NCBI GenBank assembly: GCA_019637975.1
Contig: JAHBUR010000028.1
Span: 1 to 50,688 of the forward strand
DNA from: Bacteroidota bacterium
Lineage (GTDB): Bacteria; Bacteroidota; Ignavibacteria; UBA10030; UBA6906
DNA: 50,688 nt
Direction: 5' to 3'
Numbering within the stretch: the stretch's first letter is position 1; every line of letters starts with the position of its first letter. Below are positions 19,894 through 38,950 of the stretch, in pieces. The notes beneath the pieces were generated by a model, which saw only the letters and a list, made by a program, of their open reading frames with translations, did no database searches and was not told where the DNA came from. Made by a program: the position numbers and the translations under genes.

Positions 19894-20109
19894 ACTGTCT
19901 CCTTCTGGTGATGTTGTGTGTGATTGTTGATTCAATAAGCGCCACACAGGATTGCTTCGGCGAGTGTGGTGTGTGTTGGTGAGAACTCTCCAAGTGTCCC
20001 CTTCTCGTTCAACATCACACAAAGTGAGTTCTCAATACTTTTGCGGAACGTTCCGCTCTCGTCAGGAGAGGGAGGAGGGGTGGGTTTCTATGTGAAAGAA
20101 CGAGCCGGA

Positions 20110-23091
20110 CTATGTGCCCGGCTTGAGAATGACGCCGATGTTCTTGTGCCCGTTGATCTTCACGGTTATCGGATTTACAAAACGCAAATGCCTTGTGAAG
20201 TCAAGCTCTTCTATAGCGGGCTGTTGCGCCAACCACTCCCAATCAATGAAGCCCTGGTGATTGGCGGAGTTGACAGTGAAATAGCCGACACGAAACGATG
20301 TAATGTTCTGGAAAAAATGCGAACCCTGCGAGGGCGTAACGCTGAAGTCTTTGAAGCCCGACTCGACAATGGCCGCCGCACCCGAAATCTGATCCCACGT
20401 GACGGGAATGCCGAGCCAATGGTCGAGGCTTCCCCAGCGCCCGACGCCGATGAGTACATACGGCCTTTTCTGTTCAAGCAATTTCGTATTAAGTTGACTG
20501 ACTTCCTGGGCGACGCTGATGCTTTTGCCGCGTTCAAACTTCTCGATATCCACCACAATGACATCGTAGATGTCACGTATCGCTCCGTTGCCCAGCACCT
20601 GCTCGCTCTGGCAGATCAAATCGTTGGTGCTGACGGTATCTATTCGCAATTCTTCAGATTCGGCACTGAGCACAAGAGGCCTGATTTGCAGAAACGCAAA
20701 CTCGTTCGGTTCATGTGTTGTGACATTCATGTTGACGGCGAATTCGATTTCCACATGCGTTCCCATTCCCCACGTTCCCATATCGAGAACGAGATCGAGA
20801 ATATCGGCAAGCGGAAAGAGCTTGTGCTTCAGAATCGGGGCAAACGTCACGACACGCCTGCCCGGACGCGAGATGCCGTCGTACACTGAATCGTTTTCGG
20901 AGGAATAGGTTGACGCGACATAAAAGAGGGTCTCATCGACTTCAGCCGTCTTCACATCGTACAATTGAACAAACTCGTCGGGGGTATGGCCGTTCGATCT
21001 GTTGAGGCTTTCCTCAAGATTCAACGCATAAAACTGCTGCTGGGCGTTCTTGAGTGTCTCCTTTGCGGAGAAAAACTGCAGCATGTGTCGCGGATACTTC
21101 GGACAAAAACGAACCGTATTGCCGCCATCCACCACAATCTTTCCCAATCCCAACCCCACAAGCACGATGCCGTCGGTCGGTTTTTGGGGAGGAACGGGGT
21201 AGAAGTTGTACGATTTTGCGACTCCGGCGAACTCGGGATAGTAGCGCCCGTTGCGCGGCGAACCGACCATCTTCTGGATGATCACGGCCATCTTCTCTTC
21301 TTCAAGCCTGTACGCGGTTGCTTTCATGTAATCCCGCGCATGTTTCGAAAACGTCGAAGCATAGACAAGCTTGATCGCCTGCAGCAATTCGGCGAGCCTG
21401 ACATCAATGCTCGGGTTGTTGTTTGCGATCATGTATGTCTGATATACACCGGCAAACGGCTGGTACTGTGAATCCTCCAGCAGGCTTGACGAACGGACAG
21501 CGAGGGGAGTGTGGGTGATTTCGAGAAACTCACGGAGCTTCTGGACAATATCGGAAGGGAAGTGATGGGCACCGGAAAAACGATGCAGAAGTTCATGATC
21601 CTCAATGCTGCTGTGGGCGAATCCTTCCAGAGTATTGTCTTCAAGAAACCGGTCAAACACATCCGTGGCAATGACCACCGCCGAAGGCACGTGGATCTCG
21701 ACGCCGGGAAACTTGTCTCTGATGTTGTAGTTATTGATAAGCGTGTTGATAAATCCCAACCCGCGTGCCTTGCCGCCGAGTGAGCCGCTGCCGATTCGTG
21801 CAAAACTGTTCTGCGGGTCGAAAGTGTCCTTGCTGAATTCGGTGATCACGCCCCGCTGCCTGATCTCGCGGTATTTCTGCAGTGAGCTGATCAGCAGTTC
21901 CCGCAAACCCTGAACCGATTCAAAATCATCCACCTTCTGGGGCCGGAGCTGTTGGGCAAGCCAGAATTCCGTTCGTGCCTTCAGCCAGTTGGAAAAATGG
22001 TTGCGCCGGGCATGGTACACGATGCTCTCGTCGGGAACCACCCGGAGTTGTTCCTCCAACGTGCGCAGGTTGTTCGCACGGCCCACCTCGGCCCCGTCAT
22101 TCAACTTGAACACAAAATCACCGAAACCGAAGTGGTTGAGCATGTACTCGCTCAGGTCATGCAGAAGAGTGGGGGAACCTTTCAAGAGAAACGAAGCGCC
22201 TATTTCCTGCGCGCGTTGGGCATTTTCCGCATTGCTTGATTGGAGAAGAATCGGAATGTCGTCGTGGCGTTCCTTTACCAATCTCGCGAATTCAATCCCC
22301 GCATCCGTTTCCTTGATTCCCCCCTTGACGAAATTCACGTCCGAAATGATACCGAGGATAAAATCTTCATACTGCTCGTAGTACGCCTTCGCCTCCTCGA
22401 ACGTGGTACAGAGCAGAATTTTCGGGCGGGCCCGCATGCGCAGGAACCGGTGCGTGATGTTCACCCCTTCGGTGATGAGCCGTTGCGATTGCTTGAGGAT
22501 TTCCGTGTAGATGAGCGGGAGATAGACGGAATAGAACTGCACGCTGTCTTCCACGAGGATGATGGATTGCACGCCGACTGTACGCGTGTCGTTCTCGACA
22601 TTCTCCTTGTCTTCGAGGTATTTGATGATACCGATAAGAAGATGGTAATCCCCCTGCCAGATAAAAATCTTGTCGAATATCGAAATGTCGTGATTGGTAA
22701 CGAGTTCTTTCCGCTCCCTGTTGTCGTAAGCGAGCAACACAATGGGAATGGTGATGCCGGCTTCCCGTGCCTCCTCAGCAAATCGCGTGACGTGCATATC
22801 CTCGATATGCAGTGTGGTGATGATCAGATCAAATTGTTCACCGCTTTGCAGCAACTCGATGGCTTCACTGCCGCTGCTGATATGCGTGATTTCGGGAGGG
22901 TGGCTGAGGTTGAGCGTCTGAAATTCCGAGCGGATGAGTTCGTACAACCTGCCGTCTTCTTCGAACAGATAGCTGTCGTACAGACTGGAGACGAGCAAAA
23001 TATCCCTGATCTTGAACCGCATCAGTTTTTGGAACGTCTTGACGCGTGTTCCCTGGATATCCTCGATATTGAGGCGATCAATCTTGCTCAT
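20110..23091 (-). CDS. Two receiver-like domains fused to PEP-synthase-type ATP-grasp domain, paralog 2
   Basis: 993 residues, colinear over its whole length with the protein at 13291-16314. The first receiver-like domain again lacks the phosphoacceptor Asp (DLIITTLHIEDM). The second keeps VEDS, IISDVNF and LLKG. The PPDK_N part has GSLGGKARGLGF and LAVRSSSLLEDSQ. It also ends without swivel or PEP-barrel domains. I take the ATG at 23091 (MSKIDRLNIEDIQGTR); the frame extends 16 codons further to a TTG. The gene is followed by gdhA paralog 2, mirroring the order around paralog 1. An inverted repeat (23143-23203) lies in its leader. Confidence 0.88.
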   Translation of the reverse strand: MSKIDRLNIEDIQGTRVKTFQKLMRFKIRDILLVSSLYDSYLFEEDGRLYELIRSEFQTLNLSHPPEITHISSGSEAIELLQSGEQFDLIITTLHIEDMHVTRFAEEAREAGITIPIVLLAYDNRERKELVTNHDISIFDKIFIWQGDYHLLIGIIKYLEDKENVENDTRTVGVQSIILVEDSVQFYSVYLPLIYTEILKQSQRLITEGVNITHRFLRMRARPKILLCTTFEEAKAYYEQYEDFILGIISDVNFVKGGIKETDAGIEFARLVKERHDDIPILLQSSNAENAQRAQEIGASFLLKGSPTLLHDLSEYMLNHFGFGDFVFKLNDGAEVGRANNLRTLEEQLRVVPDESIVYHARRNHFSNWLKARTEFWLAQQLRPQKVDDFESVQGLRELLISSLQKYREIRQRGVITEFSKDTFDPQNSFARIGSGSLGGKARGLGFINTLINNYNIRDKFPGVEIHVPSAVVIATDVFDRFLEDNTLEGFAHSSIEDHELLHRFSGAHHFPSDIVQKLREFLEITHTPLAVRSSSLLEDSQYQPFAGVYQTYMIANNNPSIDVRLAELLQAIKLVYASTFSKHARDYMKATAYRLEEEKMAVIIQKMVGSPRNGRYYPEFAGVAKSYNFYPVPPQKPTDGIVLVGLGLGKIVVDGGNTVRFCPKYPRHMLQFFSAKETLKNAQQQFYALNLEESLNRSNGHTPDEFVQLYDVKTAEVDETLFYVASTYSSENDSVYDGISRPGRRVVTFAPILKHKLFPLADILDLVLDMGTWGMGTHVEIEFAVNMNVTTHEPNEFAFLQIRPLVLSAESEELRIDTVSTNDLICQSEQVLGNGAIRDIYDVIVVDIEKFERGKSISVAQEVSQLNTKLLEQKRPYVLIGVGRWGSLDHWLGIPVTWDQISGAAAIVESGFKDFSVTPSQGSHFFQNITSFRVGYFTVNSANHQGFIDWEWLAQQPAIEELDFTRHLRFVNPITVKINGHKNIGVILKPGT

Positions 23092-23400
23092 GCACTGAAC
23101 TCGATTGTGGTTCGTGGGAGGGTGTTTGTTTGGATGCAAAACAGGCGTATTTCACTGTCTGGACACCTCATCCCTATTGTAAAGTACAGTGAAGAATACG
23201 CCTATGGAAAGTTAGCACAATTAGGGGGATTGTGCAACCGGTAAAAAAGGAGCTCACCATCCGGCCACACTTACCGGAATAGCCAATGAAAACAATGGGT
23301 ATTTAGCTCACTCGTTACCGGCAAAAGGCCTTTGTTGGTGCGTGACGTGCGGGTTTATGGCCGGGATCGACACGGTAGGACCTTTACCTACCGATCGATC
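23092..23400. other. Intergenic region upstream of ATP-grasp paralog 2
   Basis: About 310 bp without a convincing gene. It contains an inverted repeat (23143-23203), three scattered copies of TTACCGG or its complement (near 23239, 23270, 23319), and GTAGG-ACCTTT-ACCTAC near 23374. It would be the 5' leader and promoter region of the minus-strand gene at 23091. Confidence 0.45.
23143..23203. promoter_or_regulatory. Inverted repeat in leader of ATP-grasp/receiver gene
   Basis: AGGCGTATTTCACTGT (23143-23158) is nearly the reverse complement of ACAGTGAAGAATACGCCT (23186-23203), with a 27-base loop. It lies 52-112 bp upstream of the start at 23091. It could be an operator or a leader hairpin; no T-run follows it on the minus strand, so it is not a terminator. 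Confidence 0.45.
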
Positions 23401-24246
23401 TTACCGCTTCATTAGCTCAATCACCTGTTGCAACTGACCTTTTTCAAGAAAATCCGAAGGCTGTTCAGCAATGTATGCGCCCACTTCTCTTCCGGCAACT
23501 TGTGCTTTGCCCATTCCCGAACGAGTGTCTGTTCTCAATATCATCACCCGCTCATCGCCTTTGCCGAGCTTCGGCGCACCGTAGAACGCGATATCCATCG
23601 ACATGGGGAAGCGGACGACAATCTCGGCGCCGTCGGGAATGCCCTTTACACCCTTACTCACCTTCACGATTGCGTCGTGCCATTCGGGGTCATGTTCGGT
23701 GATGCGCTTTTGCGTTTCCGGCGGAGATGGCTGAATGCTTGTGACTTTGCCCAGCGCTACGATGTCGGCACTGTCGATGCGGGCTCGAAATTGTGCCTCC
23801 ATCATCGCCTTGCGGGATGCAAAAAACTGCTTGCGCAGATCATCCTGTGCCGCCGGTGACATCGTTGCAGGAAGAGGCGTATGCCCGATTTCACGAAGGG
23901 CAACTCCTTGTCCCAATATCCAACCGTCGGTGTAGAAGAGTGACCGCGTACCCGGCGCCAGACTTGCTTTCAACTCCAGCGTGATTTCTTCTCCTTCCTT
24001 GATGGAGATTGCCGAAGGCTGTTGCAGAATCTGATCGACCTTCACAACGCTCGTGGTATTCGAGACAGGAACCTCGGCAAAGCTTGCCGCCCCCGTTTGT
24101 GAAATCGTTCCGACAAACACAACACTCGACTTCTTCATCATCTCCTGATCAATCGGCTGCGAGGAAGAGATGTTTTGGACCAGAACGAGCAAGGTCCCGG
24201 CGAATAGTGCTGAAAGATGTATTCTATACTGAGAGTTCTTCTTCAT
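23401..24246 (-). CDS. Secreted protein with two similar halves, unknown function
   Basis: 281 residues with a signal peptide (MKKNSQYRIHLSALFAGTLLVLVQNISSSQ). Two segments look related: SSVVFVGTISQTG...VVKVDQILQQP (about 40-78) and ADIVALGKVTSIQP...DAIVKVSKGVKG (about 165-205). Both have the pattern of a secreted OB-like/netrin-like module in which a stretch of strands is followed by a hydrophobic VxVxxxLxG strand. No catalytic motif. It sits 12 bp downstream of the propeller lipoprotein gene on the same strand, so the pair is probably one operon. Confidence 0.65.
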   Translation of the reverse strand: MKKNSQYRIHLSALFAGTLLVLVQNISSSQPIDQEMMKKSSVVFVGTISQTGAASFAEVPVSNTTSVVKVDQILQQPSAISIKEGEEITLELKASLAPGTRSLFYTDGWILGQGVALREIGHTPLPATMSPAAQDDLRKQFFASRKAMMEAQFRARIDSADIVALGKVTSIQPSPPETQKRITEHDPEWHDAIVKVSKGVKGIPDGAEIVVRFPMSMDIAFYGAPKLGKGDERVMILRTDTRSGMGKAQVAGREVGAYIAEQPSDFLEKGQLQQVIELMKR

Positions 24247-26130: not shown

Positions 26131-26355
26131 ACATATCCAACCCCTTCAGGGTTGCGGATTGTTGTGTGGTGTTTGTTACCGGGGACTTCGTCCCCGGCTA
26201 TAATATCCGACCCCGTCGGGGTCGGTGTAGAACAATTCGCCGAATCGTTCGCATTAGCATGACCCCAAAGGGGTCAGATATTACAGGCAGGGGCGAAGCC
26301 CCTGCAAAAGGTCACAAAGGTAATTCCTTCACCCTGAAGGGGTGAGATTGTCATG
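26131..26355. repeat. Composite REP-like element, copy B
   Basis: Same palindrome order as copies A and C, starting ATATCCAACCCCTTCAGGG and ending CACCCTGAAGGGGTGAGAT. It reaches the stop codon of the transposase gene. Confidence 0.85.
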
Positions 26356-26811
26356 TCAATCCCATACATACCGCTCATCAAATTCCATCTCATATTCTCT
26401 CAACAATGCACGGTACTCATCTTGAAAAGTTGTTCGGCGATGATGTTCCTCTTGATTGCGTATGTAGTCAACAATGTGATTGATTTCTCCGCGACCGACA
26501 GAAAAAACGCCGTAGCCGTTTTGCCACGAGAACTTCCGCAACGTTGTTTTTTTCGTCTTTGCCCATTTGGATGATTGAACCTTGAGTTCCTGGATCAGGT
26601 TCGCAAGTGCCATTGTCCGGGAAAGTGAGCAGAGTAAGTGTACGTGATCGGCCACGCCTCCAATACACAGGACTGCGCAGCCACACGCTTTGGAAGTTCC
26701 TCCGAGGTATGCATGCAGTTCCGACCGAAAGTCCTTGTCGCCGAGGAACGGATATCGATCTTTCGTGGAAAACACGATGTGAACAAGTACATTGGCAAGC
26801 GATTGAGGCAT
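26356..26811 (-). CDS. REP-associated tyrosine transposase (RAYT, IS200/IS605 TnpA-like)
   Basis: 151-residue Y1/HUH single-strand DNA transposase. The HUH metal-binding motif is in ADHVHLL (about residues 58-64), and the catalytic Tyr is in NHIVDYIRNQEEHHRR (about 119-134). The opening MPQSLANVLVHIVFSTKDR is the usual first strand of this family, which fixes the start at ATG 26811. RAYTs act on the REP palindromes around their own gene; here copies B and C of the composite repeat abut it on both sides and copy A is just beyond. It looks intact, so the repeats could be mobile now or recently. Confidence 0.93.
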   Translation of the reverse strand: MPQSLANVLVHIVFSTKDRYPFLGDKDFRSELHAYLGGTSKACGCAVLCIGGVADHVHLLCSLSRTMALANLIQELKVQSSKWAKTKKTTLRKFSWQNGYGVFSVGRGEINHIVDYIRNQEEHHRRTTFQDEYRALLREYEMEFDERYVWD

Positions 26812-26832
26812 GTCGAATCTCCAGTAGGTTCG

Positions 26833-27058
26833 TGTATCCAACCCCTTCAGGGTTGCAGATGGTTGTGTGGTGTTTGTTACCGGGGACTTCGTCCCCGGCT
26901 ATAATATCTGACCCCGTTGGGGTCATATCGACCACATGTAGAACGATTCAATGAATCGTTCTGACCCCAAAGGGGTCAGATACTATAGGCAGGGGCGAAG
27001 CCCCTGCAAAAGATCACAAGATGGATCCCTTCACCCTGAAGGGGTGAGATACCAAACG
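26833..27058. repeat. Composite REP-like element, copy C
   Basis: Same series of palindromes as copies A and B, beginning GTATCCAACCCCTTCAGGG and ending in CACCCTGAAGGGGTGAGATACC. It lies just downstream of the cas9 stop codon and just upstream of the transposase start, so it would be in the 3' end of the cas9 transcript. Confidence 0.85.
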
Positions 27059-27061
27059 CCC

Positions 27062-27679
27062 TTACAAAACCCCGCCCGGCACAACCCCTTTACGAAACTG
27101 CGCAACTTGCGCATCCGCGAACGGCTTCGAAAACAACGACGCCTCTTCCGCATACGCCCTGAACAAATGCAAAATGTAATGCATCCGCTGGCGTAAATCC
27201 GCCCAATCCCTCGCGCCGCAATCGCTGGTTCCCGCCGGACACGTCTCATACTCGCGAAGAAAACCGGCAAGAACCGGATGCGGCGTTCCGGCGAACACAG
27301 GCGGCACGGGCGCATCAAGATTCTTCCCGAGCGCCAACACAACATCCGGCAACCTCAACACCATCATCGCCTCGGTGACAATCTCGCGTGTAATCTTCAC
27401 CGCGGCATTTCTAATCCGTGCCGCCAACCACCCGATTGCCGCGGCTGAAGGCTTACGGATCCACTCGTACCACCGCTCGGCACCCGGAATCAACTTGTGC
27501 AACACACGACCGCCAAGATCCTCCGCCGTCACCAACGGTGCATCGATTGCTTCGGCGATTTGCGGCTGCAAACGCGTCTGTTCGTGCAGCCCGATTTTCA
27601 GATTCGCCAGAAGCATCCACGCAGCCCGGGCGGCGGGATCGCTCTCGTACCTCTGCCAAGGTATTAGGCGAGGATCCAT
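27062..27679 (-). other. C-terminal domain of Cas9 that may also be translated alone
   Basis: The last 205 codons of the cas9 frame encode MDPRLIPWQRYESD..., with LLANLKIGLHEQTRLQPQIA near the start and DWADLRQRMHYILHLFRAY and LFSKPF near the end. This is helical, Trp-rich and unlike any Cas9 C-terminus I know. From memory it resembles the C-terminal half of a stand-alone uncharacterised family of ~400-residue bacterial proteins; unverified. The in-frame ATG at 27679 is preceded by AGGAGGAG at 6-13 bases, so an independent product is possible. Two rows counted by hand here are 58-60% GC against 38-42% in two rows of cas9 proper. Confidence 0.6.
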
Positions 27680-30600
27680 ATGCTCCTCCTCCCTTGGAAC
27701 GAACACGAGATCACTAGGGGAAAGCACTATTACCTTATGCTCAGGCAACGCATCCGCAAGCGGAGACCTATTGGCAAGTCGATTGATCGCATCAAGCAGG
27801 GGTAAAGTGAACATTTGCTTTCTTTCCGTTGTTCCAAGATGTTCATAGATGACGAAGTAAAGATTGCTACCCTTGTCGACTTCTACTAACCTGCCTTTGA
27901 ACTCCTCTTTATTGCCTACTTCCTCATAGATTGTAACTTTCTTAATTGGTCTTCCTCCGTTCTTCTTTTCTAACATCTCAAGCCCTTCTCCTTGGAAAGC
28001 CTCCTCGGGTTTGTCCTTATGCGCTTTCAAATGTGCATGCAGTATTCTAGCGAGAAGAGACTTCTCTGCATATGGAATTTTGTCGATCTTGTCGTGCGTA
28101 AATGATTTGTCTATGGCAACTCTCTTAGCCGCGTATGCTACGAACTCTGCGACTCTCACAGTTACAATCGCCTTTCCTTTCGAGTTTGTGAGGGGTACTT
28201 TTTTCAGTGCTCGTTTAATTGCTTCGAGATCGGCACCATGTTGCTTAATAACTTCTTTGATTTGAATTCGAGCATCCTTGTCATAAACGTAAGAAGACGT
28301 TTTCGCATCGATTGTACCCACCGCTTTTTGGCGCAAAATTTCAAGCTCAATTGCTCGCAGGGGCTTGACCTCTCTTATCTGTTTTAAGTATATGATGCCC
28401 AGCGGCTCTTTGAACATTGATTTGCGGATTGCCAGCCATTTCGCTGTAGCATCTTGCGGAGGAGTCTGCTCCACAAGTTCCTTCACCCATTCTCCCTTGG
28501 GATTTTGTACCCACTTCAAATAGCGATTGTCGGGCCTTGTTACCAGCCTATTGTTTGACTTGACGGAGCAAACCACTTCGTTTAGTTTATCTTTTGCGTC
28601 CTTTGCAAAGGCAGGCCACGGCAAAGCAAAGCCGCTGATCTTACGCTTCACGAGCCTAAGCTTTATCTCTCTCAGTTCATTCTTGCTGTCAACGGCATTC
28701 AATGAATTTAAATATCGGATGTGCTCCCGTGTTGTGGTTGCCACGATCAATGCATCTAATGCGTGATGTCGGTGGTCAATACGTTTCTCGTTTAGTCGAG
28801 GATTTTCCGGCACATTGTAGTGAAACTTGTTTGCATCCTTTTCATCCCGGAAGATCAGTTTCTTTCCAGTGATTTTTTCCAATCTCTCAAACCGGGGCCT
28901 GAGTAGCTCTTTCCAAACTCGATTGAGTCCCCATTGCGCTCTGAGATCTCCGGTTATACTTCCAATTGTAAACACCAAGCCTTCCTTATCTCTTGCAATT
29001 GGATAAAGCAATTCGTTTAGCTTTCTACTGATATATCGGGTGTCGTTGATTTGGCGCGAGATGAATTCGTCAGGAACGTCCTCCCGCAGCAGGTTTGCTC
29101 GTTTCCTCCCTCGGAAAGTTTTTTTGCAGTGCTCAACATAGGCCTCTTCCTCCAAGATTGTATATTCGATGCCGCCTATTCTTAGTGTCTGCCCGCTGAA
29201 TTGTCGGATGAAATGCCGGGCAAGTTTATTACCCTTGTATGGCTCGGGGTTAAGAGCGACCTCGCAGATCACAAGATTCTCAAAGGAGTCGTCCTTTAGC
29301 TTTGACTGCGGTATGATATGCTCTACCTGGTATTCATGCGTGAAAAGTTTGCTAATGGGAATGACTTTGCCGGTGTAAGGGGATATGCACTTCTGGCTCA
29401 ACCATAACGCATATTTCCGAATCTCTCTTCCCGTTGGTGTTCTTTTTCTGTCGTCAGTCCGGAAGAACTCAAAGAGCTCCTTGCGTCTTTCATCATCAAT
29501 ATTGTTCTCGCCAAGGCTCTTCCAGATTCGGAACTTCTCAATATCAGCCGGTGATTCAGGGTTTGGGTCCACTTCAAAGTGCGACGTGACTTTTTGGTGA
29601 TCCGAATATTCTTCAAAATCTCCGTTCATCAATTCATAGAGCAATTGCTTGATCCGTTGCTTCTCCGAGAAATTGGCACTGTTCCTCTCTGCGATTCTAC
29701 TTCGTTCTTCTGCATTCTTCTTTAGGTCTCGGGCAAGCTCAATGTGAATTTCATCAGGTCGCCCGTACTGCTTCCAGACATCTTTGACCAACCGTAATGT
29801 TTCCCGGACAATCTGCTCGACAATGGGATTGCGCAAGCTATTGTGTGGGACGAGTTTCATGACATCTATTTGCTGATATCCGCCATTGTCTGAGTATTTC
29901 TCATTCGATTCTCGCTCGGAGTGTCTTCCATAGACAACGTAACATGCCATCCAAACCGGCAGGCCTTGAAATTGCTCTCGCTCTCGAAATTGCCTCTTTT
30001 CAATAAACTCTCCGGTTTTCTTATCGATTTCAAAGTCCCATCCGTTGCTTCGAATATCTTCTATCCGTTCCCGCGTCTGCGCTGGAATAGCTTCCCAACT
30101 CCATTTGGCGCCACAGCGCATAACGGTCAACAATTTATTGATTGCCTTGGATGATAGCGCAGCATATTTCTTTGGCAGTTCAGGAAGTTTTGCCAAGTCA
30201 TCGATGACTGCCGGGGGCAAGTTGAAATCATGTTTTGGATTTCCGAGAGCTGACCTTATGCCCTTGTCCGAGATCTCCTTTTTTGACGAGCTTATTGAGT
30301 AGATGATATGCCATAACTTGTAGAATTTGATCTTATCGGCAAGTAGTTTACTTCCTTCCTCGTCAAAGCCATGTTTTTTGAACACTCGTCTGAACTGTTG
30401 CTTTGTTTCATTTCCCTTGAGTGCTTTTCGGTAGGGCGTAATGAGATTGATCGTATGTGTTTCTTCTGAAAGTGCCTTCTCATGTCGACATTCATTTAAC
30501 TTCTTGAAAATGTCACTTTGGTCGATTTCAGAAGAGGAGTCAAATAGATCAAAGAGAACCCCTTTGGTGCTTTCATCAATGAAGTCCTTTGTAACATCCA

Positions 30601-32047
30601 CATCAAACTGCGGTCGGCCGTCTACGAGTCTTTCTTTCTGGATTATGCGCAGGTTGTGGATGTCTTGCCAAATGCGGAACTCTTGAAACTCAGGGCTTGA
30701 AATAGGGGCCACCTTGACCCGTGACTTCCGTTCATTGCCGGCTTTCTTGTATGTGTGATACTCGAATTGACATCCGCCTACAAGTTTCTTCTGTGATCTC
30801 AACTCGCGCTGATAATAGATAATGTCATTAGCAAAAACATGAAAGAGATCATGGGACAGTATGTCCTTCAGCTTCTCCTTTTTCTCTCGTGTTTGAGTCG
30901 GATACAGTACTTGGGCGATTTGGTAGAGCTTGGATTTGTCCTTGAGTTCCGGCAAAAAAGCCTCTGCTTGTTTGTCCCATATGGCCTTAAGTTCCTTTTC
31001 ATATTTTTCTCTTCGAACTGCAGTTTGCCGTATGCGATAATTCTTATCCTCAACCAGTTTGCCCAAGAAAAACTCCCCCGGGTGTTTCTGTTCGGCATCA
31101 ATCTGGTTATCTAACGCAACCATTGCAAGTTCCCAATCACCTTCTTGTGGTGTTTGCGGCTTAAGTTGGGTTAGCTTGCCCTTCTTGTCTACCTTTTGGG
31201 TGACGACAAGCTTGAATTCTTTGCCTTCCCACTCGGGCTTCTTTTTTCTCTTTTCAACCCAAGGTTCTAGTCTAGGGTCAGAGGCAGTTATTGTAAATGA
31301 GAAATTGCCTTTGCTGTCTGTCTCTTTGCCATCCTGCTTGACGGATTTGATTTTGCTTATTGAAACAAACTTGGTTTCGAGCGCTTCACCTTTCCCCTCG
31401 GCATATTCTGGTGAATGACCGGCCTTGATCCTCTCATGGACCTTTATGAACTCATCATAGCTTAGTACAGTTGTCTCGCGGAGATCCTTTCTACTGCTTT
31501 TGAATCCACGCCTCTGGTTCATCATGTACAGTATTCGGGCAAGTTCTTTCAGCGTAATCTTCTTTGAAAGCGCTTTCTTGCGAAGATAGTATACGATCCA
31601 ATCGGGCGAAATCGGTAGTGTGCCATCTTTCTTTCTCTTGATCCCAAACTCACTTAGTGCTTCATCAATTGTGGTTTCGTCGAAGGGCAGATAGTTATTA
31701 ATATGGAACTTATAGTTGGGGTCTTCTTCCATTCTCTGCTTAAAGTCCTCAGGAAAGTCATCCGGTACCCATCCTAAGACCTTGAAGACTTCTATGAGTC
31801 TTGCTCGTCGAAGGGTGTAGCGATGTTTCAGTCGGCGGGCGCTCCGGGCTTTTGTTCTTGCCGCCGCTTTGGTCACTACCATTCCGCCGCATTCGAACTT
31901 TTGCAGCATTTCTCCATCCACAGGGATAATTCTGCTGCCCAGCCATTCGATCTTTCCTTCCTTTCCATACTGGTCGAGTGAACCAATCTTTACCAAAGCG
32001 CCACCAATGGAATTTGTTCCCAAGTCGAGGCCCAAGACAGTTTTCAT
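27062..32047 (-). CDS. cas9: Type II-C Cas9 with a foreign-looking C-terminal extension
   Basis: RNA-guided dsDNA nuclease, 1661 residues, longer than most II-C Cas9 (about 1000-1500). Catalytic residues are all present: RuvC-I D8 (GLDLGTNS), Arg-rich bridge helix ~60-90, RuvC-II E770 (HIELARD), HNH E909-H910 with N933 (YQVEHIIPQSKLKDDSFEN), RuvC-III H1095 and D1098 (HHALDA). REC lobe ~95-750. The PAM-interacting region runs normally to VLSPSDLVFVPREEE, where Bacteroidota Cas9s usually continue for another ~100 residues; here a different 205-residue sequence follows from 1457. ATG 32047 is preferred over 32062 because AAGGAG precedes it. No cas1, cas2 or array is present. Confidence 0.93.
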   Translation of the reverse strand: MKTVLGLDLGTNSIGGALVKIGSLDQYGKEGKIEWLGSRIIPVDGEMLQKFECGGMVVTKAAARTKARSARRLKHRYTLRRARLIEVFKVLGWVPDDFPEDFKQRMEEDPNYKFHINNYLPFDETTIDEALSEFGIKRKKDGTLPISPDWIVYYLRKKALSKKITLKELARILYMMNQRRGFKSSRKDLRETTVLSYDEFIKVHERIKAGHSPEYAEGKGEALETKFVSISKIKSVKQDGKETDSKGNFSFTITASDPRLEPWVEKRKKKPEWEGKEFKLVVTQKVDKKGKLTQLKPQTPQEGDWELAMVALDNQIDAEQKHPGEFFLGKLVEDKNYRIRQTAVRREKYEKELKAIWDKQAEAFLPELKDKSKLYQIAQVLYPTQTREKKEKLKDILSHDLFHVFANDIIYYQRELRSQKKLVGGCQFEYHTYKKAGNERKSRVKVAPISSPEFQEFRIWQDIHNLRIIQKERLVDGRPQFDVDVTKDFIDESTKGVLFDLFDSSSEIDQSDIFKKLNECRHEKALSEETHTINLITPYRKALKGNETKQQFRRVFKKHGFDEEGSKLLADKIKFYKLWHIIYSISSSKKEISDKGIRSALGNPKHDFNLPPAVIDDLAKLPELPKKYAALSSKAINKLLTVMRCGAKWSWEAIPAQTRERIEDIRSNGWDFEIDKKTGEFIEKRQFREREQFQGLPVWMACYVVYGRHSERESNEKYSDNGGYQQIDVMKLVPHNSLRNPIVEQIVRETLRLVKDVWKQYGRPDEIHIELARDLKKNAEERSRIAERNSANFSEKQRIKQLLYELMNGDFEEYSDHQKVTSHFEVDPNPESPADIEKFRIWKSLGENNIDDERRKELFEFFRTDDRKRTPTGREIRKYALWLSQKCISPYTGKVIPISKLFTHEYQVEHIIPQSKLKDDSFENLVICEVALNPEPYKGNKLARHFIRQFSGQTLRIGGIEYTILEEEAYVEHCKKTFRGRKRANLLREDVPDEFISRQINDTRYISRKLNELLYPIARDKEGLVFTIGSITGDLRAQWGLNRVWKELLRPRFERLEKITGKKLIFRDEKDANKFHYNVPENPRLNEKRIDHRHHALDALIVATTTREHIRYLNSLNAVDSKNELREIKLRLVKRKISGFALPWPAFAKDAKDKLNEVVCSVKSNNRLVTRPDNRYLKWVQNPKGEWVKELVEQTPPQDATAKWLAIRKSMFKEPLGIIYLKQIREVKPLRAIELEILRQKAVGTIDAKTSSYVYDKDARIQIKEVIKQHGADLEAIKRALKKVPLTNSKGKAIVTVRVAEFVAYAAKRVAIDKSFTHDKIDKIPYAEKSLLARILHAHLKAHKDKPEEAFQGEGLEMLEKKNGGRPIKKVTIYEEVGNKEEFKGRLVEVDKGSNLYFVIYEHLGTTERKQMFTLPLLDAINRLANRSPLADALPEHKVIVLSPSDLVFVPREEEHMDPRLIPWQRYESDPAARAAWMLLANLKIGLHEQTRLQPQIAEAIDAPLVTAEDLGGRVLHKLIPGAERWYEWIRKPSAAAIGWLAARIRNAAVKITREIVTEAMMVLRLPDVVLALGKNLDAPVPPVFAGTPHPVLAGFLREYETCPAGTSDCGARDWADLRQRMHYILHLFRAYAEEASLFSKPFADAQVAQFRKGVVPGGVL

Positions 32048-32065
32048 TTTTTCTCCTTGCATTTA

Positions 32066-32210
32066 TGAAGGGACAACACTATCTTTCCTCCGAAGCAAAC
32101 TACAATAAGGATTATTCCGTAGCGAAGCTTCGGCTTCAACAGGTTCGCCCTCGTCCTTTAACGGGGGCATTTTTGTTTTCTGGTGCCCCGGTTCTTCCGG
32201 GGCTTTTTGT
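32066..32210 (+). ncRNA. tracrRNA for Cas9
   Basis: Divergent from cas9, starting ~20 bp from its start codon. Elements in order: anti-repeat (about 32071-32105, ending GCAAACTACAATAAGG), nexus GGA-TTAT-TCC (32109-32118, in AAGGATTATTCCGT as in other type II tracrRNAs), GAAGC-TTCG-GCTTC tetraloop hairpin (32124-32137), GCCCTCG/CGGGGGC hairpin (32147-32168) with a T-run, and a strong terminator. The matching CRISPR repeat should start TTGTAGTTTGC, but no such repeat occurs in the window. The promoter would lie in or next to the 5' end of cas9. Confidence 0.8.
32185..32208 (+). terminator. tracrRNA terminator
   Basis: GCCCCGG (32185-32191), loop TTCTT, CCGGGGC (32197-32203), then TTTTT. Confidence 0.88.
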
Positions 32211-32575
32211 TTCTATCCGTTATGCAAACATCGACAGACCGCCCCTGACGCAGTTGTCTTGGTCCAATTAAGTGGGGAGTAATATTTCTCGCGTCCCGGT
32301 GCCTTGCACTGCCCATAGGCAAGTTCAACAATCAGTGTTCAAGTACACCCCGCATAGGACACAGCGGGGCAACGTAATCAAGTATAAATATATACGCCCC
32401 CTCACTCCGCCCTGTGTGCATGTTCCTGGTCATGCAAACCGTGAGGGGACAGATAACGTCTGCCCTGTCCGTAGTAAGTGTAGCAAATGCGATTGGTATT
32501 TGCAAGCGGAATTATGGAGAGTCAAGCATCAGCCGTTTCCGGCCTGTGGCGTTAACCCTTTTTGCTGTTTTGATC

Positions 32576-32880
32576 TATGTCGTCGAAATCGTCGGGAGTG
32601 AGGGTGGGGACGATCTATCGAAGCGTTTGGATTTCGGCAGACAGCCGATTTACACTCGGCCGAAATCCACGGCCGTGCGTGGGAGATGGATTGGCGTGTC
32701 ATCCGTTCCGACGAAGTCGGAACGAGATCTCGTTCCCAAAGGGAACGGACGATTTCGACATACATTTTGCCGCAACAATCAAAATAGGATTGAGCGGCAT
32801 CCCGCTTTGCCGGACTTTCGTCCATTTTTCGCTTTCCAGAATCTCGCTTCAGGCGAATCCTGAGAGCGGACTTTTCTAAA
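32576..32880. repeat. Nested hairpin element, copy 1
   Basis: Outer arms TATGTCG(TCG)AAATCGTC (32576-32593) and GACGATTTCGACATA (32748-32762). Inside are CGATCTATC/GATGGATTG (with two G-T pairs), then GGATTTCGGC/GCCGAAATCC, and an apical GCCGA...TCGGC. A side palindrome TCCGTTCCGAC...CGGAACGAGA and CGTTCCC-AAA-GGGAACG follows. A 3' tail has GCCGCAACAATC...GATTGAGCGGC and terminal arms GTCCATTT...AAATGGAC. Confidence 0.75.
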
Positions 32881-33167
32881 GAAATGGACAACAAGAAGCC
32901 CAGCAACATCAATCGCTGAAATCGCCTTTCACCTTGGGCGTCACGGACCACTCCGTGACGCTACTATGTTGACCCTTTCTTTAGGAAAGAAAGGGTCGAA
33001 AGAAACGTGCATTGAAATCGTAACGCACGGCTCAGAGAAGTCAGGCTCTGGATGAAGACGATTTCAGTTTGAGAAGCAACTGAAATCGTAAGCACGGTTG
33101 TTTCCGGCGCGCATGCCGACGATTTCAATGCGAGGTTCAACGAAGCTCCGCACGACAATCATTGACC

Positions 33168-33460
33168 ATGTGTCGTCGAAATCGTCGGCTCTGCGGGAAG
33201 GGGAATCAATCGGAGGGTTTAAGTTTCGGCACCCGGGATTCATCACCGCCGAAACTTACGGCCTGTGCGGTGGCGATTGTCCGAAGGACCCCCTTCGGGG
33301 ATTCCGAAAGGGTATCCGTTCCGACGTAGTCGGAACGAGATCTCGTTCCCAAAGGGAACGGACGATTTAGACAAGTTCTCTCCCGCATCAATTCAAATTC
33401 TGATTGAGCGGGATCCCGCTTCGGCGGATTTGGTACTTTCTCTTCCAAGGAGAAAGTACA
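33168..33460. repeat. Nested hairpin element, copy 2
   Basis: Same architecture as copies 1 and 3 with diverged bases: opening GTGTCGTCGAAATCGTC and closing GACGATTTAGACAAG, CAATCG/CGATTG in place of CGATCCATC/GATGGATCG, AAGTTTCGGC/GCCGAAACTT in place of GGATTTCGGC/GCCGAAATCC. The tail hairpin is GTACTTTCTC...GAGAAAGTAC. Stems stay paired although the bases differ. Confidence 0.7.
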
Positions 33461-33706
33461 TCGGGCCGTGACATCCGTGTGCAAATCCGCGTTAACACAC
33501 CCCGTCACGCCTCCGCCAAACAGACGGCGGACAGGTCGGCGTGACACCCCTCTCAAGAGGGGAGTATGTGTTCAGCGCAGAAAAAGAATCACTGATTGAC
33601 GCACTCCCCTCTGTGCGTTAGCTCGCGCGTAAGCGAGAGGGGAGACGGAGGGGTGTGTTATCATGCGATCACAGAAAAAGAAAACCACGCCTGCGATCTA
33701 CAATAC

Positions 33707-33980
33707 TGTGTCGTCGAAATCGTCGGGGCCGTGAGCGTGGGGACGATCCATCGAAGCGTTTGGATTTCGGCAGACAGCCGATTTACACTCGGCCGAAATC
33801 CACGGGCCGTGCGTGGGAGATGGATCGGGGGCTTACGATTTCGACAGGGTTTTGCCGCAACAATCCAAAACAGAATTGTGCGGCATCCCGCTCTGCGGGA
33901 CTTTGGTTACTTTTTCCGCTTTTTGAATCCGCATTGAGCGGAATCCAAAGAGCGGGGCTTCGCCCACAAAGAAAGTAACA
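33707..33980. repeat. Nested hairpin element, copy 3
   Basis: Nearly identical in its core to copy 1: TGTCGTCGAAATCGTC and ACGATTTCGACA outer arms, CGATCCATC/GATGGATCG, GGATTTCGGC/GCCGAAATCC, apical GCCGATTTACACTCGGC. It lacks the TCCGTTCCGAC side palindrome of copies 1 and 2. The tail is GTTACTTT...AAAGTAAC. Confidence 0.75.
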
Positions 33981-34022
33981 CACAACCCTGCCGTGACACC
34001 CCTCCCTTTCACTCACTTCACT

Positions 34023-34213
34023 CTGTGCAAATCCGAACAATCCGTGTCATCAGCGTTCGATATCACCCGGGTTCCAGAATCCGGCCCTGCGAACTGTAGA
34101 GCGAGTCTCCGACTCGCTCATTGTAGAGCCAAACTGGAGTTTGGCTCTACAAGTTTCTCTCGCGTGTGTGAACCAATCTGTGCAAATCCGAACAATCCGT
34201 GTCATCTGCGTTC
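34023..34213. repeat. Duplicated 36-bp sequence enclosing two palindromes
   Basis: CTGTGCAAATCCGAACAATC and the following 16 bases occur at 34023-34058 and again at 34178-34213 with one mismatch; a decayed third copy lies near 34688. Between the copies are GAGCGAGTC-tcc-GACTCGCTC (34099-34119) and a perfect 15-bp-arm palindrome TTGTAGAGCCAAACT...(34121-34152). Confidence 0.75.
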
Positions 34214-34233
34214 TATCTTCTCACCCGAACTGC

Positions 34234-34554
34234 TCAGCCACCCTGTTTTGCCGCGGCCAGCGCCTTCAACCGCTTCATCTCTTCACCCACAATCGTGTTG
34301 AAAACCGATTTCCCTTCGGTACGAGCCTGCTCCTCGTATGCGGCGCGGAGCTGCGGATTGCGTATCGCCTGCTTGGCGTACTGTACCGCTGCGCGAAATT
34401 GGTCAACTGACTCTTTTTGTTCAACACTCAGCTTGCGCTTGCTGAAATCAGGGCATTTGGATAGATACACCTTGCCGTTTCTCCGCTTATACACCCATCC
34501 GCCCGACTTGCCGCTAAGTCCTTGAAACATCGCATGTAGCTGAACCGTTGCCAT
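34234..34554 (-). CDS. Small conserved-looking protein, unknown function
   Basis: 106 residues, cytoplasmic, basic and helical. AAAGGAG sits 8 bases before ATG 34554, so translation is likely. The N-terminal pattern QGLSGKSGGWVYKRRNGKV then LSKCPDFSKRKLSVEQ recalls the G-x-x-G...VxRxxxGK...xxPxxxxxxSxxQ start of a widespread Bacteroidota family that includes DUF6266-like proteins (from memory). The rest, FRAAVQYAKQAIRNPQLRAAYEEQ, is helical. It stands alone between the palindrome island and the gdhA remnant, a typical accessory-gene setting. Function unknown. Confidence 0.7.
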   Translation of the reverse strand: MATVQLHAMFQGLSGKSGGWVYKRRNGKVYLSKCPDFSKRKLSVEQKESVDQFRAAVQYAKQAIRNPQLRAAYEEQARTEGKSVFNTIVGEEMKRLKALAAAKQGG

Positions 34555-34819
34555 ATCTTCGCTCCTTTATACGTGGCTCTGATCTTCTCCGCTTCTGCTC
34601 CGCATCTCCTCCGCTTCCGGGTTATAGCTGAACCATTGCAGAATTTGTGCCAGTACGTGGGCGGCAGCGCCTCTATATTTTGTGAGAATCAGGACAATCC
34701 GTCTCATCTGTGTTCCATTTCCTTGTTCTCACCTGGGAACATCGCACCGGCCAAAAAGAAACGGCCCTCTCTGAATAGAAAGGGCCGCAATCCGTAATCC
34801 GAAATCGCCAATCCGGAAT
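34555..34819. other. Non-coding stretch
   Basis: Contains the promoter side of the small gene at 34554, a decayed copy of the CAATCCGTCTCATC repeat near 34690, and a minus-strand terminator at 34757-34787. Nothing coding is seen. Confidence 0.5.
34757..34787 (-). terminator. Minus-strand terminator
   Basis: On the minus strand CGGCCCT, a 12-base loop, AGGGCCG, then TTTCTTTTT. It lies downstream of the gdhA remnant and of the secreted-protein gene at 34930, whose transcript it would end. Confidence 0.75.
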
Positions 34820-34920
34820 CTACACCAATCCCTGATCCAGACAGTTGAGGCCATACTGTTCTGGCTCATCTCAAGGCCGGAGGTTGCCACGCCGCCTTCA
34901 TTGGATGCTTTGCCGGGCCT
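34820..34920 (-). pseudogene. Remnant of a glutamate dehydrogenase gene
   Basis: Minus-strand translation gives GKASNEGGVATSGLEMSQNS, matching the gdhA at 36056 (GKASNAGGVATSGLEMSQNS). After this, about 60 codons are missing and the frame shifts to CLDQGLV-stop, matching the end of the same protein (MMDQGLV-stop). So an internally deleted fourth copy of the gene's 3' end remains. It is not translatable as an enzyme. Confidence 0.88.
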
Positions 34921-34929
34921 AAGAGGTTG

Positions 34930-35853
34930 TTACTCCTTTATCTCGATCACTCTTGTTTCAATTCTTGACCCACCCTCTGCCGTAATCTCACGAGTACTGA
35001 TCGAGTACAACACCCATCCCGAAGGACCGTGAATTTGTGTGGCAGTCCGATCTTCGATGCTCACCGGCGGAATAGACTCCCGCGTGGGGGGCGTTAATCC
35101 TGACGTCTCTGCAGCCTTCTTCAAGAACTCGTACGAAGCATTCGTTGCCTGGTCCGAGTCAACCGTCATCCAGACCCGGAGTATCGCCTCTTCATACTCC
35201 TCGTCTATCTCCTCCAATAATACCGTCATTTCGGCGTCGAACGGTTCGCCTCCGAATATGTTGGGCAATTGCGTCTTGCCGGAGTATTCAAGGTCGAGTT
35301 TGTACCTGCCGCCGTGAAACGTGTAGAATTGCTGTATTTCCTTGATGGCCGCGGATTCTATCGCCTCCTTTGACGAGAACATTGCGACCATATTTGCTAT
35401 GAGCTCTCCTCCATTCGGGACGGGAGGGAGATCGGAGGTAATGAGCTGAACACTTCTGTGCATGAAGTCTCGAACCTCTTGCCAATTCGCCACCTCGAGA
35501 AATCCTCCGAATTCGTCGGTGCGGATCACGACCTTCATATTCTCCGACGCGGAGGCGAGTTTCTTGAGCAGTTGATTGTTGCCTTCCACGGAAAAATTCT
35601 TGTACAGCCACTCGATTGTATAAGAACTCGCCGTCGAATCTGCTACGGTGATTTCAACGTCGTATGACGACTGATCGCGGGAGGTGGTATCCCCGCTTTG
35701 TATCCTGAATGTTTGCTCTGTGATGGAGTATGTCTCCTTGTCTCCCCTGTTCCAGTATCCGATGACCTGCACAGTTGAATCGGCTCGATTGATTTGTGCG
35801 TGACCGGTTAGCGTGAGGAGAGATGCAAGAATGATGGCGCTGCCTGTTCTCAT
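34930..35853 (-). CDS. Secreted protein, unknown function
   Basis: 307 residues with a signal peptide (MRTGSAIILASLLTLTGHAQ). The start at 35853 is chosen to put this signal at the N-terminus; an upstream in-frame start would bury it. The mature part is beta-rich and acidic (TVQVIGYWNRGDKETYSITE..., DQSSYDVEITVADSTASSYTIEW), similar in feel to DUF6263-like secreted proteins of Bacteroidota, but I do not assign a family. It lies between gdhA paralog 3 and the gdhA remnant, as if carried in a duplication of the gdh region. Confidence 0.7.
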   Translation of the reverse strand: MRTGSAIILASLLTLTGHAQINRADSTVQVIGYWNRGDKETYSITEQTFRIQSGDTTSRDQSSYDVEITVADSTASSYTIEWLYKNFSVEGNNQLLKKLASASENMKVVIRTDEFGGFLEVANWQEVRDFMHRSVQLITSDLPPVPNGGELIANMVAMFSSKEAIESAAIKEIQQFYTFHGGRYKLDLEYSGKTQLPNIFGGEPFDAEMTVLLEEIDEEYEEAILRVWMTVDSDQATNASYEFLKKAAETSGLTPPTRESIPPVSIEDRTATQIHGPSGWVLYSISTREITAEGGSRIETRVIEIKE

Positions 35854-36014
35854 TGGTATTCTGCCGATTGGTTGTGAGTTCCTCGGAAACCTGTGGCCGT
35901 TACTTTGCTTTCTGACGTTCCCGGCATGCAACAGACGGTGGGTTTACATTGCGTGTCCTTTCGAGTCGGGAGATGTGTGGAAGAGTGTTTTCGTCTCACG
36001 CACGGGAGAAACGA

Positions 36015-36044
36015 AAAAGGACGAGGGGTCTGCCTCGTCCTTTT
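36015..36044 (-). terminator. Terminator of gdhA paralog 3
   Basis: A 12-bp perfect stem AAAAGGACGAGG/CCTCGTCCTTTT with a 6-base loop. T-runs occur in both directions; on the minus strand it ends the gdhA transcript 12 bp past its stop. Confidence 0.85.
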
Positions 36045-36055
36045 GTTGTTTGTTG

Positions 36056-37396
36056 CTACACCAATCCCTGATCCATCATGGAATTTGCCACTTTCAGGAA
36101 TCCGGCGATGTTGGCACCGTTCACGTAGTTGCCGGGTGTGCCGTACTGTGCCGCAGTTTCCACGCACATGTTGTGAATGCTGCTCATGATTTCGTGAAGC
36201 CGTCTGTCCACTTCCTCGGCGGGCCAGTTGAGCCGCATGCTGTTCTGACTCATCTCCAGTCCGGAGGTTGCCACGCCGCCTGCATTGGACGCTTTGCCGG
36301 GTGAGTAGAGGATCTTCGCCTCTTCGAACACTTTCACTCCTGCAAGTGTCGTCGGCATATTGGCGCCTTCACACACGCAGATGCAGCCGTTCTTTACGAG
36401 TTCGCGGGCATCGTTTTCGTCGAGTTCGTTTTGCGTAGCGCAGGGCATTGCCACATCAACAGCGATGCTCCATGGCCGCTTGCCAGCATGGAACGGCACC
36501 TTGAACTTATCGGCATAGGGCTTCACCGCGTCCATTGCGCTGGCGCGGAGTTCCAGCATGTAGTCGATCTTCTCACCCTTCACACCGTTTTCATCGTAGA
36601 TGAAGCCGTCGGGACCGGAGAGTGTAACCACTTTGCCGCCGAGTTGAGTCACCTTCTTTGCTGCGCCCCAGGCGACGTTGCCGAATCCTGAGATTGCAAC
36701 CCGCTTTCCATCGAACGCCATCCCTTTCGTCTTCAACATTTCTTCGGCGAAGTATGTTGCGCCGAATCCGGTTGCCTCCGGTCGGACAAGCGAGCCTCCC
36801 CAGTTCAGTCCCTTTCCGGTAAGAACTCCGCCGAACTCGCGGGTCAAACGTTTGTACTGCCCGAAGAGGAATCCGATCTCCCGTCCGCCAACGCCTATGT
36901 CGCCTGCAGGTACGTCAACATCCGGCCCGATATGGCGGAAGAGTTCGGTCATGAAGCTCTGGCAGAACCGCATCACTTCGCTGTCGCTTTTGCCTTTAGG
37001 GTCGAAATCCGAACCGCCTTTTCCTCCGCCCATCGGCAGTGAGGTAAGGCTGTTCTTGAACACCTGCTCGAACGCAAGAAACTTCAGGATGCCGAGCGTG
37101 ACGGAGGGGTGGAAGCGCAGCCCGCCTTTATACGGCCCGATGGCGCTGTTCATTTGAATGCGGAAGCCCCGGTTAATGTGAAACTCCCCCTGATCGTCCT
37201 GCCAGGGAACACGGAACATCACCACGCGTTCGGGTTCCACCATGCGTTCCAGGATTCTGGCCGACCGGTACTCGGGATGCCGGTTCAGCACCAACTCCAG
37301 CGATTCTGCCACTTCCTGAACAGCCTGATGGAACTCGGGTTCAGCGGGATTTTTCGCCTTTACTTGTGCGATGAGATTCTTTACATAGTCTGACAT
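36056..37396 (-). CDS. gdhA: Glutamate dehydrogenase, hexameric 450-residue type, paralog 3
   Basis: 446 residues, homologous along its length to the product at 18532. It has LPMGGGKGGSDFDPKGKSD, GDIGVGGREIGFLFG and the Rossmann motif GFGNVAWGAA. The ATG at 37396 (MSDYVKNLIAQVKAKNPAEPEF) aligns with MSTYVQDLMAEVKAKNPAEPEF of paralog 2 and has AGAGG upstream. Compared with paralog 2, the nucleotide-binding half diverges more (for example LRASAMDAVKPYADKFKVPFHAGKRPW), so cofactor or regulation may differ. It has its own terminator and is a single-gene transcript. Assimilatory role inferred from family. Confidence 0.96.
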   Translation of the reverse strand: MSDYVKNLIAQVKAKNPAEPEFHQAVQEVAESLELVLNRHPEYRSARILERMVEPERVVMFRVPWQDDQGEFHINRGFRIQMNSAIGPYKGGLRFHPSVTLGILKFLAFEQVFKNSLTSLPMGGGKGGSDFDPKGKSDSEVMRFCQSFMTELFRHIGPDVDVPAGDIGVGGREIGFLFGQYKRLTREFGGVLTGKGLNWGGSLVRPEATGFGATYFAEEMLKTKGMAFDGKRVAISGFGNVAWGAAKKVTQLGGKVVTLSGPDGFIYDENGVKGEKIDYMLELRASAMDAVKPYADKFKVPFHAGKRPWSIAVDVAMPCATQNELDENDARELVKNGCICVCEGANMPTTLAGVKVFEEAKILYSPGKASNAGGVATSGLEMSQNSMRLNWPAEEVDRRLHEIMSSIHNMCVETAAQYGTPGNYVNGANIAGFLKVANSMMDQGLV

Positions 37397-37738
37397 GCTT
37401 TGCCTCTTGATTGAATAATGTTTGGAATTGTGAAGCGAATTCGCGCAGTTCGCAATGCGGTAAGAACGGAGTGTAAAAATAGCCTGATTAAAAGTAGGAA
37501 AGTCCGGCTGCATTTGCAAGATGACAAAAAGGTGTTGAAATCGGGCCAAAACCGGAGGAGCAGCGGCAGTTTGCGGACTTGACTTCGGACATGGAGAATC
37601 CTATCTTACCCACCCAAACGGATACGATGTCTCTTCGTATCGACGCATATTACGTTCCCTTCCGGGGAATTCATCGCTTTCGAAATCGCTGTATCCGAAC
37701 CGGCTGTCTTTCACAAACCAACCACAAGGAGGAGTCAG
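37397..37738. other. Divergent promoter region between gdhA 3 and sulfurtransferase
   Basis: About 340 bp of non-coding DNA. It contains a sigma70-like promoter for the plus strand at 37579-37607 and, close to the predicted transcript start, a hairpin GATACGA-TGTCTCT-TCGTATC (37621-37641). No coding sequence seen. Confidence 0.5.
37579..37607 (+). promoter_or_regulatory. Promoter of sulfurtransferase gene
   Basis: TTGACT (37579-37584), 17-base spacer, TATCTT (37602-37607). A transcript from about 37614 would have a ~125-base leader with a 7-bp hairpin at its 5' end. Confidence 0.5.
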
Positions 37739-38584: not shown

Positions 38585-38588
38585 GAAC

Positions 38589-38786
38589 GTGAAAGCAGAA
38601 GAGTTCGCAACCGAAAAGCAACTACTCAACGGGATCGATCTTGAACTGACAACATACAGAATCGGCGATGAGTATTACTGTCACGTTTCGAACCTGAATC
38701 CCGGCGCCACGATTGCGCGTGCCGGAGGAAAAAGCCGAGACGAGGCCGTCCATCTTGCGCTTGAAAGGGTAAAGCAGCGGCTGTAA
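38589..38786 (+). CDS. Small protein downstream of sulfurtransferase
   Basis: 65 residues from GTG 38589, with AGGGAGC about 9 bases upstream; an in-frame TTG further upstream would overlap the sulfurtransferase stop. The sequence (VKAEEFATEKQLLNGIDLE..., YRIGDEYYCHVSNLNPGATI, SRDEAVHLALERVKQRL) has a beta-rich middle and a C-terminal helix and ends just before a terminator. The layout resembles small HicB-like or dsRBD-like folds, but I cannot name it. It is co-transcribed with the sulfurtransferase. Confidence 0.72.
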   Translation: MKAEEFATEKQLLNGIDLELTTYRIGDEYYCHVSNLNPGATIARAGGKSRDEAVHLALERVKQRL

Positions 38787-38810
38787 TCGAACGCACGGAA
38801 ACCGTGAAAG

Positions 38811-38836
38811 AGGCGGGGACTCTCCCCGCCTTTTTT
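38811..38836 (+). terminator. Terminator of the sulfurtransferase operon
   Basis: AGGCGGGGA / TCCCCGCCT with a 3-base loop, then TTTTT. Stem and U-run are both strong. Confidence 0.9.
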
Positions 38837-38854
38837 GTGCCAATGGATTAAGAA

Positions 38855-38875: not shown

Positions 38876-38950
38876 GGCTACAGGGGATTTCGTGTATCTT
38901 TTTTACGCCTCAGGTAACTATCCCCTTACAACAATACAGGAGAAACCCCG

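What the first reader, a model, noticed from the sequence alone, without database searches (positions are those of the whole stretch)
27062..27690. Cas9 ends in a 205-residue domain that does not look like Cas9
Cas9 is normal up to VLSPSDLVFVPREEE, where Bacteroidota II-C Cas9s usually run on to a conserved last segment of the PAM-interacting domain. Here the frame continues into MDPRLIPWQRYESDPAARAA... to the stop, a Trp-rich helical sequence. Two rows counted by hand in this tail are 58-60% GC (27061-27120, 27481-27540) against 38-42% in cas9 proper (28021-28080, 29581-29640). From memory, the tail resembles the C-terminal half of a stand-alone uncharacterised bacterial family. Either a deletion fused cas9 to another gene in frame, or a domain was recruited that changes PAM reading or adds a partner.
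Basis: partly seen in the sequence, partly recalled or inferred. Interest (0 to 1): 0.85.

Follow-up and report, generated by a model that had tools for sequence, protein, structure and literature searches.

The report
Broken Cas9 fused to neighbour gene
A bacterial Cas9 gene has lost its last 80 or so codons and reads straight into the second half of a neighbouring chromosomal gene, most likely the scar of a deletion that also removed the rest of its CRISPR system, rather than a newly evolved Cas9.

Summary
The 1666-aa ORF (27062-32062, minus) is Cas9 to about residue 1469. The last 197 residues are not Cas9. They are the C-terminal half of a separate, unannotated helical protein, intact in the sister species 'uncultured Chlorobi CHB1' (86% identity) and in Actinobacteria. 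In CHB1 that gene lies at the same chromosomal place, beside a type I-C CRISPR array. Both flanks of the window are colinear with CHB1, and cas9 sits where CHB1 has its I-C locus. All 14 Cas9 homologues compared run 72-165 residues past the junction point; most end in a conserved segment missing here. In the closest homologues the order is cas9-cas1-cas2-array, so one deletion from late cas9 into the neighbour gene would remove the Cas9 end, cas1, cas2, the array and half the neighbour. No type II cas1 and no matching array were found in the genome. Best reading: an in-frame deletion scar that leaves an orphan Cas9, probably unable to read a PAM. The tail shows no sign of decay (dN/dS 0.08; no acceleration), so the event is recent or the product is still used. 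A functional chimera is not excluded, but nothing specifically supports it.

The parts
27656..32062 (-). Truncated type II-C cas9, codons 1-1469; RuvC and HNH catalytic motifs intact; last ~80 codons of the PAM-interacting domain missing
   Evidence: GLDLGTNS, IHIELARD, VEHIIPQS and DHRHHALDALI motifs present; 14 of 14 homologues extend 72-165 aa further
27655..27660 (-). Fusion point between cas9 and the neighbouring gene; no spacer; frame of the second gene kept
   Evidence: DNA homology to the sister-species gene starts at codon 1470 (CAG); Cas9-like residues up to about 1466-1469
27062..27655 (-). C-terminal half (residues 248-445 of P0003) of a stand-alone helical protein of unknown function
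   Evidence: 85-86% identity to CHB1 protein L002:7257-8594; 49% to a Thermoleophilia protein; dN/dS 0.078
27677..27694 (-). AGGGAGGAGGAG-CAT-ATG: Shine-Dalgarno-like stretch and ATG (codon 1462) that could start a 205-aa tail-only product
   Evidence: Read directly from the sequence; the purine run encodes Cas9's own Glu triplet, so it may mean nothing
26133..27061 (.). Downstream region: IS200/REP-type Y1 transposase (26356-26841, minus) between two copies of one intergenic sequence
   Evidence: Y1_Tnp 4.9e-24; 26133-26348 and 26832-27061 both match G001 57427-57722
32185..32508 (.). Upstream edge: synteny with CHB1 resumes about 120 bp before cas9
   Evidence: 32185-32508 matches G001 41392-41072 at 87%

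Best explanation
This is a deletion scar. An ancestor carried a type II-C locus (cas9-cas1-cas2-array, with the tracrRNA probably beyond the array) next to a chromosomal gene transcribed in the same direction. One deletion ran from near the 3' end of cas9 into the middle of that gene. It removed the last ~80 codons of Cas9, all of cas1, cas2, array and tracrRNA, and the N-terminal half of the neighbour. The remaining halves happened to join in frame (a 1 in 3 chance). Shown: the identity of both halves, the shared chromosomal site, the missing Cas9 end, and the failure to find a type II cas1 or a matching array. Inferred: the single deletion, its order of events, and that the product no longer works as an RNA-guided nuclease, because the final part of the PAM-reading domain and its guide RNAs are gone.
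For: (1) The tail aligns in frame with residues 248-445 of an intact 445-aa protein in CHB1 and with stand-alone actinobacterial proteins; the N-terminal half is absent from the whole own genome. (2) Window 6533-27655 and 32185-50688 are colinear with CHB1 contig 74697-56822 and 41392-25220; the gap holds CHB1's I-C cas4, cas1 and array. (3) 14 of 14 Cas9 homologues have 72-165 more residues; CbCas9 of 1442 aa aligns up to residue 1347. (4) In G278 and G360 cas1 and cas2 follow cas9 directly, then a long-repeat array, with a tracr-like anti-repeat beyond the array in G278. (5) The only cas1 genes in the genome belong to a type I-B and an RT-Cas1 type III locus. (6) A whole-genome search for the II-C repeat motif gave chance-level hits, and a scan of 51% of the assembly, including nearly all small contigs and many contig ends, found only those two systems' arrays. 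(7) GC steps near the join.
Against: No decay is visible: the 5-kb frame is open, Cas9 catalytic motifs are intact, tail dN/dS is 0.078 and 61 of 63 family-invariant tail residues are kept. The event must then be recent, or selection persists. No relative with the intact II-C locus at this site was found, so the pre-deletion state is inferred.
Confidence: 0.83

Rival explanations
1. A functional chimera: the helical tail replaces the last part of the PAM-interacting domain or brings a partner, giving a Cas9 with altered or no PAM reading, perhaps guided by RNAs from elsewhere.
For: Open frame, intact nuclease motifs, tail under purifying selection (dN/dS 0.078) with no rate acceleration (5-7 window-lineage against 4-6 sister-lineage changes).
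Against: The tail is only half of its parent protein and joins without a linker; the Cas9 PAM domain is cut in mid-domain; no type II cas1 or matching array found; no second genome with the fusion. The selection signal may all predate the fusion.
Confidence: 0.08
2. Assembly chimera: the join is an artefact of a draft assembly and both genes are intact in the organism.
For: The genome is a 68-contig draft; reads are not available; cas9 and tail differ in GC.
Against: Both sides of cas9 are colinear with the sister genome at the two edges of the same locus, so a random chimera is unlikely. The missing halves were not found elsewhere: the neighbour's N-half in the whole genome, the Cas9 end in the 51% scanned. 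Arrays usually break assemblies rather than join them.
Confidence: 0.06
3. The tail is made as its own 205-aa protein from ATG 27679 inside the end of cas9, so the fusion matters little and only the half-protein is under selection.
For: AGGGAGGAGGAGCATATG precedes codon 1462; the tail is conserved.
Against: The purine run encodes Cas9's Glu triplet. The half-protein lacks the conserved N-terminal half.
Confidence: 0.03

Closest known systems
Type II-C Cas9 of Bacteroidota, CbCas9-like (PDB 8iyq, 1442 aa)
   Same: Phmmer 1e-169, best over the nuclease lobes; RuvC and HNH motifs conserved; alignable up to CbCas9 residue ~1347
   Different: Lacks the terminal ~80 residues of the PAM-interacting domain; no cas1, cas2 or array beside it
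Unnamed stand-alone helical protein (CHB1 P0003; Thermoleophilia P0004; N-terminus of P0004 weakly DUF2515-like, below cut-off)
   Same: The tail is its C-terminal half, 86% and 49% identical, with 61 of 63 invariant columns kept
   Different: N-terminal half with the NWCTFATWASRQAG motif is missing and replaced by Cas9
PcrIIC1-associated Cas9 with a C-terminal helical (CTH) domain (described in PMC13153721)
   Same: A II-C Cas9 with a helical C-terminus
   Different: From the description, the CTH is a conserved part of those Cas9s that binds PcrIIC1; here the PAM domain is cut short and the helices come from an unrelated gene
Degraded CRISPR-Cas loci (Mollicutes, PMC6882279) and truncated Fp1Cas9 in Flavobacterium psychrophilum (PMC10309648)
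   Same: Cas9 loci that lost parts are reported repeatedly; at least 8 of 21 Mollicutes systems were predicted to be inactivated or degraded
   Different: Here the break is an in-frame fusion to a neighbour gene with the frame still open

Membership tests
Type II-C Cas9 | RuvC I-III and HNH catalytic motifs | tested here: met
   GLDLGTNS, IHIELARD, VEHIIPQS, DHRHHALDALI
Type II-C Cas9 | Complete PAM-interacting domain to the conserved C-terminus | tested here: not met
   72-165 residues missing compared with 14 homologues
Type II-C CRISPR-Cas locus | cas1 and cas2 beside cas9 | tested here: not met
   cas1 only in I-B and type III RT-Cas1 loci of the genome; none in the window
Type II-C CRISPR-Cas locus | CRISPR array and tracrRNA | tested here: not met
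   None seen in the window; repeat motif at chance level in the whole assembly; general array scan covered 51% of the assembly
Stand-alone helical family (P0003/P0004) | C-terminal half with HEQTRLQP and DWADLxQRMHYI motifs | tested here: met
Stand-alone helical family (P0003/P0004) | N-terminal half | tested here: not met
   only residues 248-445 found in the genome
PcrIIC1-associated Cas9 | Conserved CTH that binds PcrIIC1, with PcrIIC1 encoded in the locus | tested here: inconclusive
   The tail is traced to another gene; a PcrIIC1 model was not searched for specifically
Functional RNA-guided nuclease | Guide-dependent DNA binding or cleavage | not testable with these tools
   Needs biochemistry

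The most novel reading that the evidence does not exclude
The fusion protein is used: an orphan Cas9 whose PAM-reading end has been replaced by a conserved helical half-domain, giving a PAM-relaxed or non-cutting DNA-binding protein, or a Cas9 body serving as a carrier for the tail's own function.
Probability: 0.08. Interest if true: 0.65.

Novelty: new member of a known kind. Interest (0 to 1): 0.27.

Why it matters
It is a clear example of how CRISPR-Cas loci are lost, here by a deletion that turned cas9 into an in-frame chimera. It also warns that an open 1666-aa 'Cas9' ORF in a database can be a truncated remnant. If the product were functional it would show that a Cas9 can tolerate replacement of its terminal PAM domain.

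Tried and rejected
Tail as a normal Cas9 C-terminus: rejected, it does not match the end of any of 14 homologues. Tail as a known family: no Pfam, NCBIfam, PADLOC or PHROGs hit. AlphaFold2 of the stand-alone parent had only 3 sequences and mean pLDDT 49, so no fold search was made; it indicates only a mainly helical protein, with the join inside a predicted helix. Viral-contig scans for the Cas9 and the parent protein found no relatives. Rfam found nothing above gathering scores near cas9. An anti-repeat search beside cas9 gave only weak AT-rich matches. A Cas9 structure job was not run because the homologues came from sources the tool does not accept.

Full report
What is there. The ORF 27062-32062 (minus) encodes 1666 residues without a stop. 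The NCBIfam Cas9 model matches residues 9-1359 (8e-115), the closest solved relative is CbCas9 (1e-169), and the RuvC and HNH motifs are intact. The tail has no match in Pfam, NCBIfam, PADLOC or PHROGs.

Where the tail comes from. A genome scan found two relatives of the tail. In 'uncultured Chlorobi CHB1' (G001, same genus) it is residues 248-445 of an intact 445-aa ORF (86% identical); family homology begins near residue 71, so the true protein is probably about 385 aa. In a Thermoleophilia genome it is a 380-aa stand-alone protein (49%). Further stand-alone members occur in other genomes of that phylum and in Nonomuraea. No member other than the window's was seen fused to Cas9. The N-terminal half is nowhere in the window's genome.

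Same place in the sister genome. Window 6533-27655 and 32185-50688 are colinear with CHB1 contig 74697-56822 and 41392-25220. Between these edges CHB1 has about 15 kb with type I-C cas4, cas1 and an array of about 41 repeats; the window has only cas9. So cas9 occupies the CRISPR site, and its 3' end runs into the gene that borders this site in CHB1.

What Cas9 lost. All 14 homologues aligned run 72-165 residues (most about 80) past the position equivalent to residue 1466, most with a conserved 'RIYKMV ... C.K..VDRLGN' ending. CbCas9, 1442 aa, aligns up to residue 1347. The residues 'HMDPRLIPW' still resemble Cas9, and DNA homology to the second gene starts at Q1470, so the halves join directly. 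In Cas9s with known structures, PAM-reading residues lie in this terminal region (general knowledge of SpyCas9, SauCas9 and NmeCas9, not tested here), so loss of PAM reading is expected but inferred.

How it arose. In the two closest relatives the order is cas9-cas1-cas2-array, with cas1 starting 8 bp after cas9 (G278) or overlapping its stop (G360) (Cas1 and Cas2 of G278 confirmed). In G278 a tracr-like anti-repeat lies beyond the array. A single deletion from late cas9 into the neighbour therefore explains every missing element at once. The window's genome has cas1 only in a type I-B and an RT-Cas1 type III locus. The II-C repeat motif occurs at chance level in the whole assembly. A general array scan of 51% of the assembly, including nearly all small contigs and many contig ends, found only the arrays of those two systems.

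Is it decaying? The tail against CHB1 has dN/dS 0.078 (neighbours 0.03-0.15), no gaps, 61 of 63 invariant columns kept, and no lineage acceleration. That fits either a recent fusion or continued use; most divergence may predate the fusion. The join keeping frame has a prior chance of one in three, so it is not evidence of selection by itself. The two other frames of the tail region hit stops.

Assembly. An artefact cannot be excluded without reads. But the contig continues on both sides of cas9 into the two edges of the same CHB1 locus, and the missing halves were not found elsewhere. Only one sister genome informs the ancestral state; the other held genome of the genus (G002) lacks both the parent of the tail and the adjacent 486-aa gene.

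Precedent. Degraded CRISPR-Cas9 loci are common in Mollicutes (PMC6882279), and truncated Cas9s are reported in Flavobacterium psychrophilum (PMC10309648). PcrIIC1-associated Cas9s have a genuine C-terminal helical domain (PMC13153721), but that is not the origin of this tail.

Noticed in passing
window 27655-32185; L002 1-7250: Two species of one genus carry different CRISPR types (II-C remnant against I-C) at the same chromosomal site, as if this were a preferred landing place.
   Followed up: partly
window 26133-27061: A Y1 (IS200/REP-type) transposase sits between two copies of one ~215-bp intergenic sequence rich in short palindromes, present once in CHB1.
   Followed up: partly
window 32509-36009: Palindrome-rich dispersed repeats (families of 75-90 bp), mostly absent from the aligned CHB1 region, fill the stretch upstream of cas9.
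   Followed up: no
window 23401-24246 and 27062-27655: The 281-aa gene and the Cas9 tail both show dS about 1.1 against CHB1, while surrounding genes mostly show 0.4-0.8, suggesting local recombination.
   Followed up: partly
L002:7257-8594, L003:6372-7514, L074, L075: A helical protein family with conserved NWCTFATWASRQAG and DWADLxQRMHYI motifs and no significant match in the protein family libraries searched, scattered between one Chlorobi-type genus and Actinobacteria.
   Followed up: partly
window 13291-16314 and 20110-23139; 11842-13161, 18532-20022, 36056-37549: Paralogous pairs of large PEP-synthase-like proteins (66% DNA identity) and three glutamate-dehydrogenase-like genes lie close together (names by eye, not searched).
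   Followed up: no
L041 8087-13060: The closest Cas9 relative (G278) appears frame-broken in table 11 (ORFs of 624, 101 and 924 aa), possibly sequencing error or another decaying cas9.
   Followed up: no
L024: A Bacteroidota Cas9 (1603 aa) with about 80 extra residues after the usual VDRLGN-type ending.
   Followed up: no
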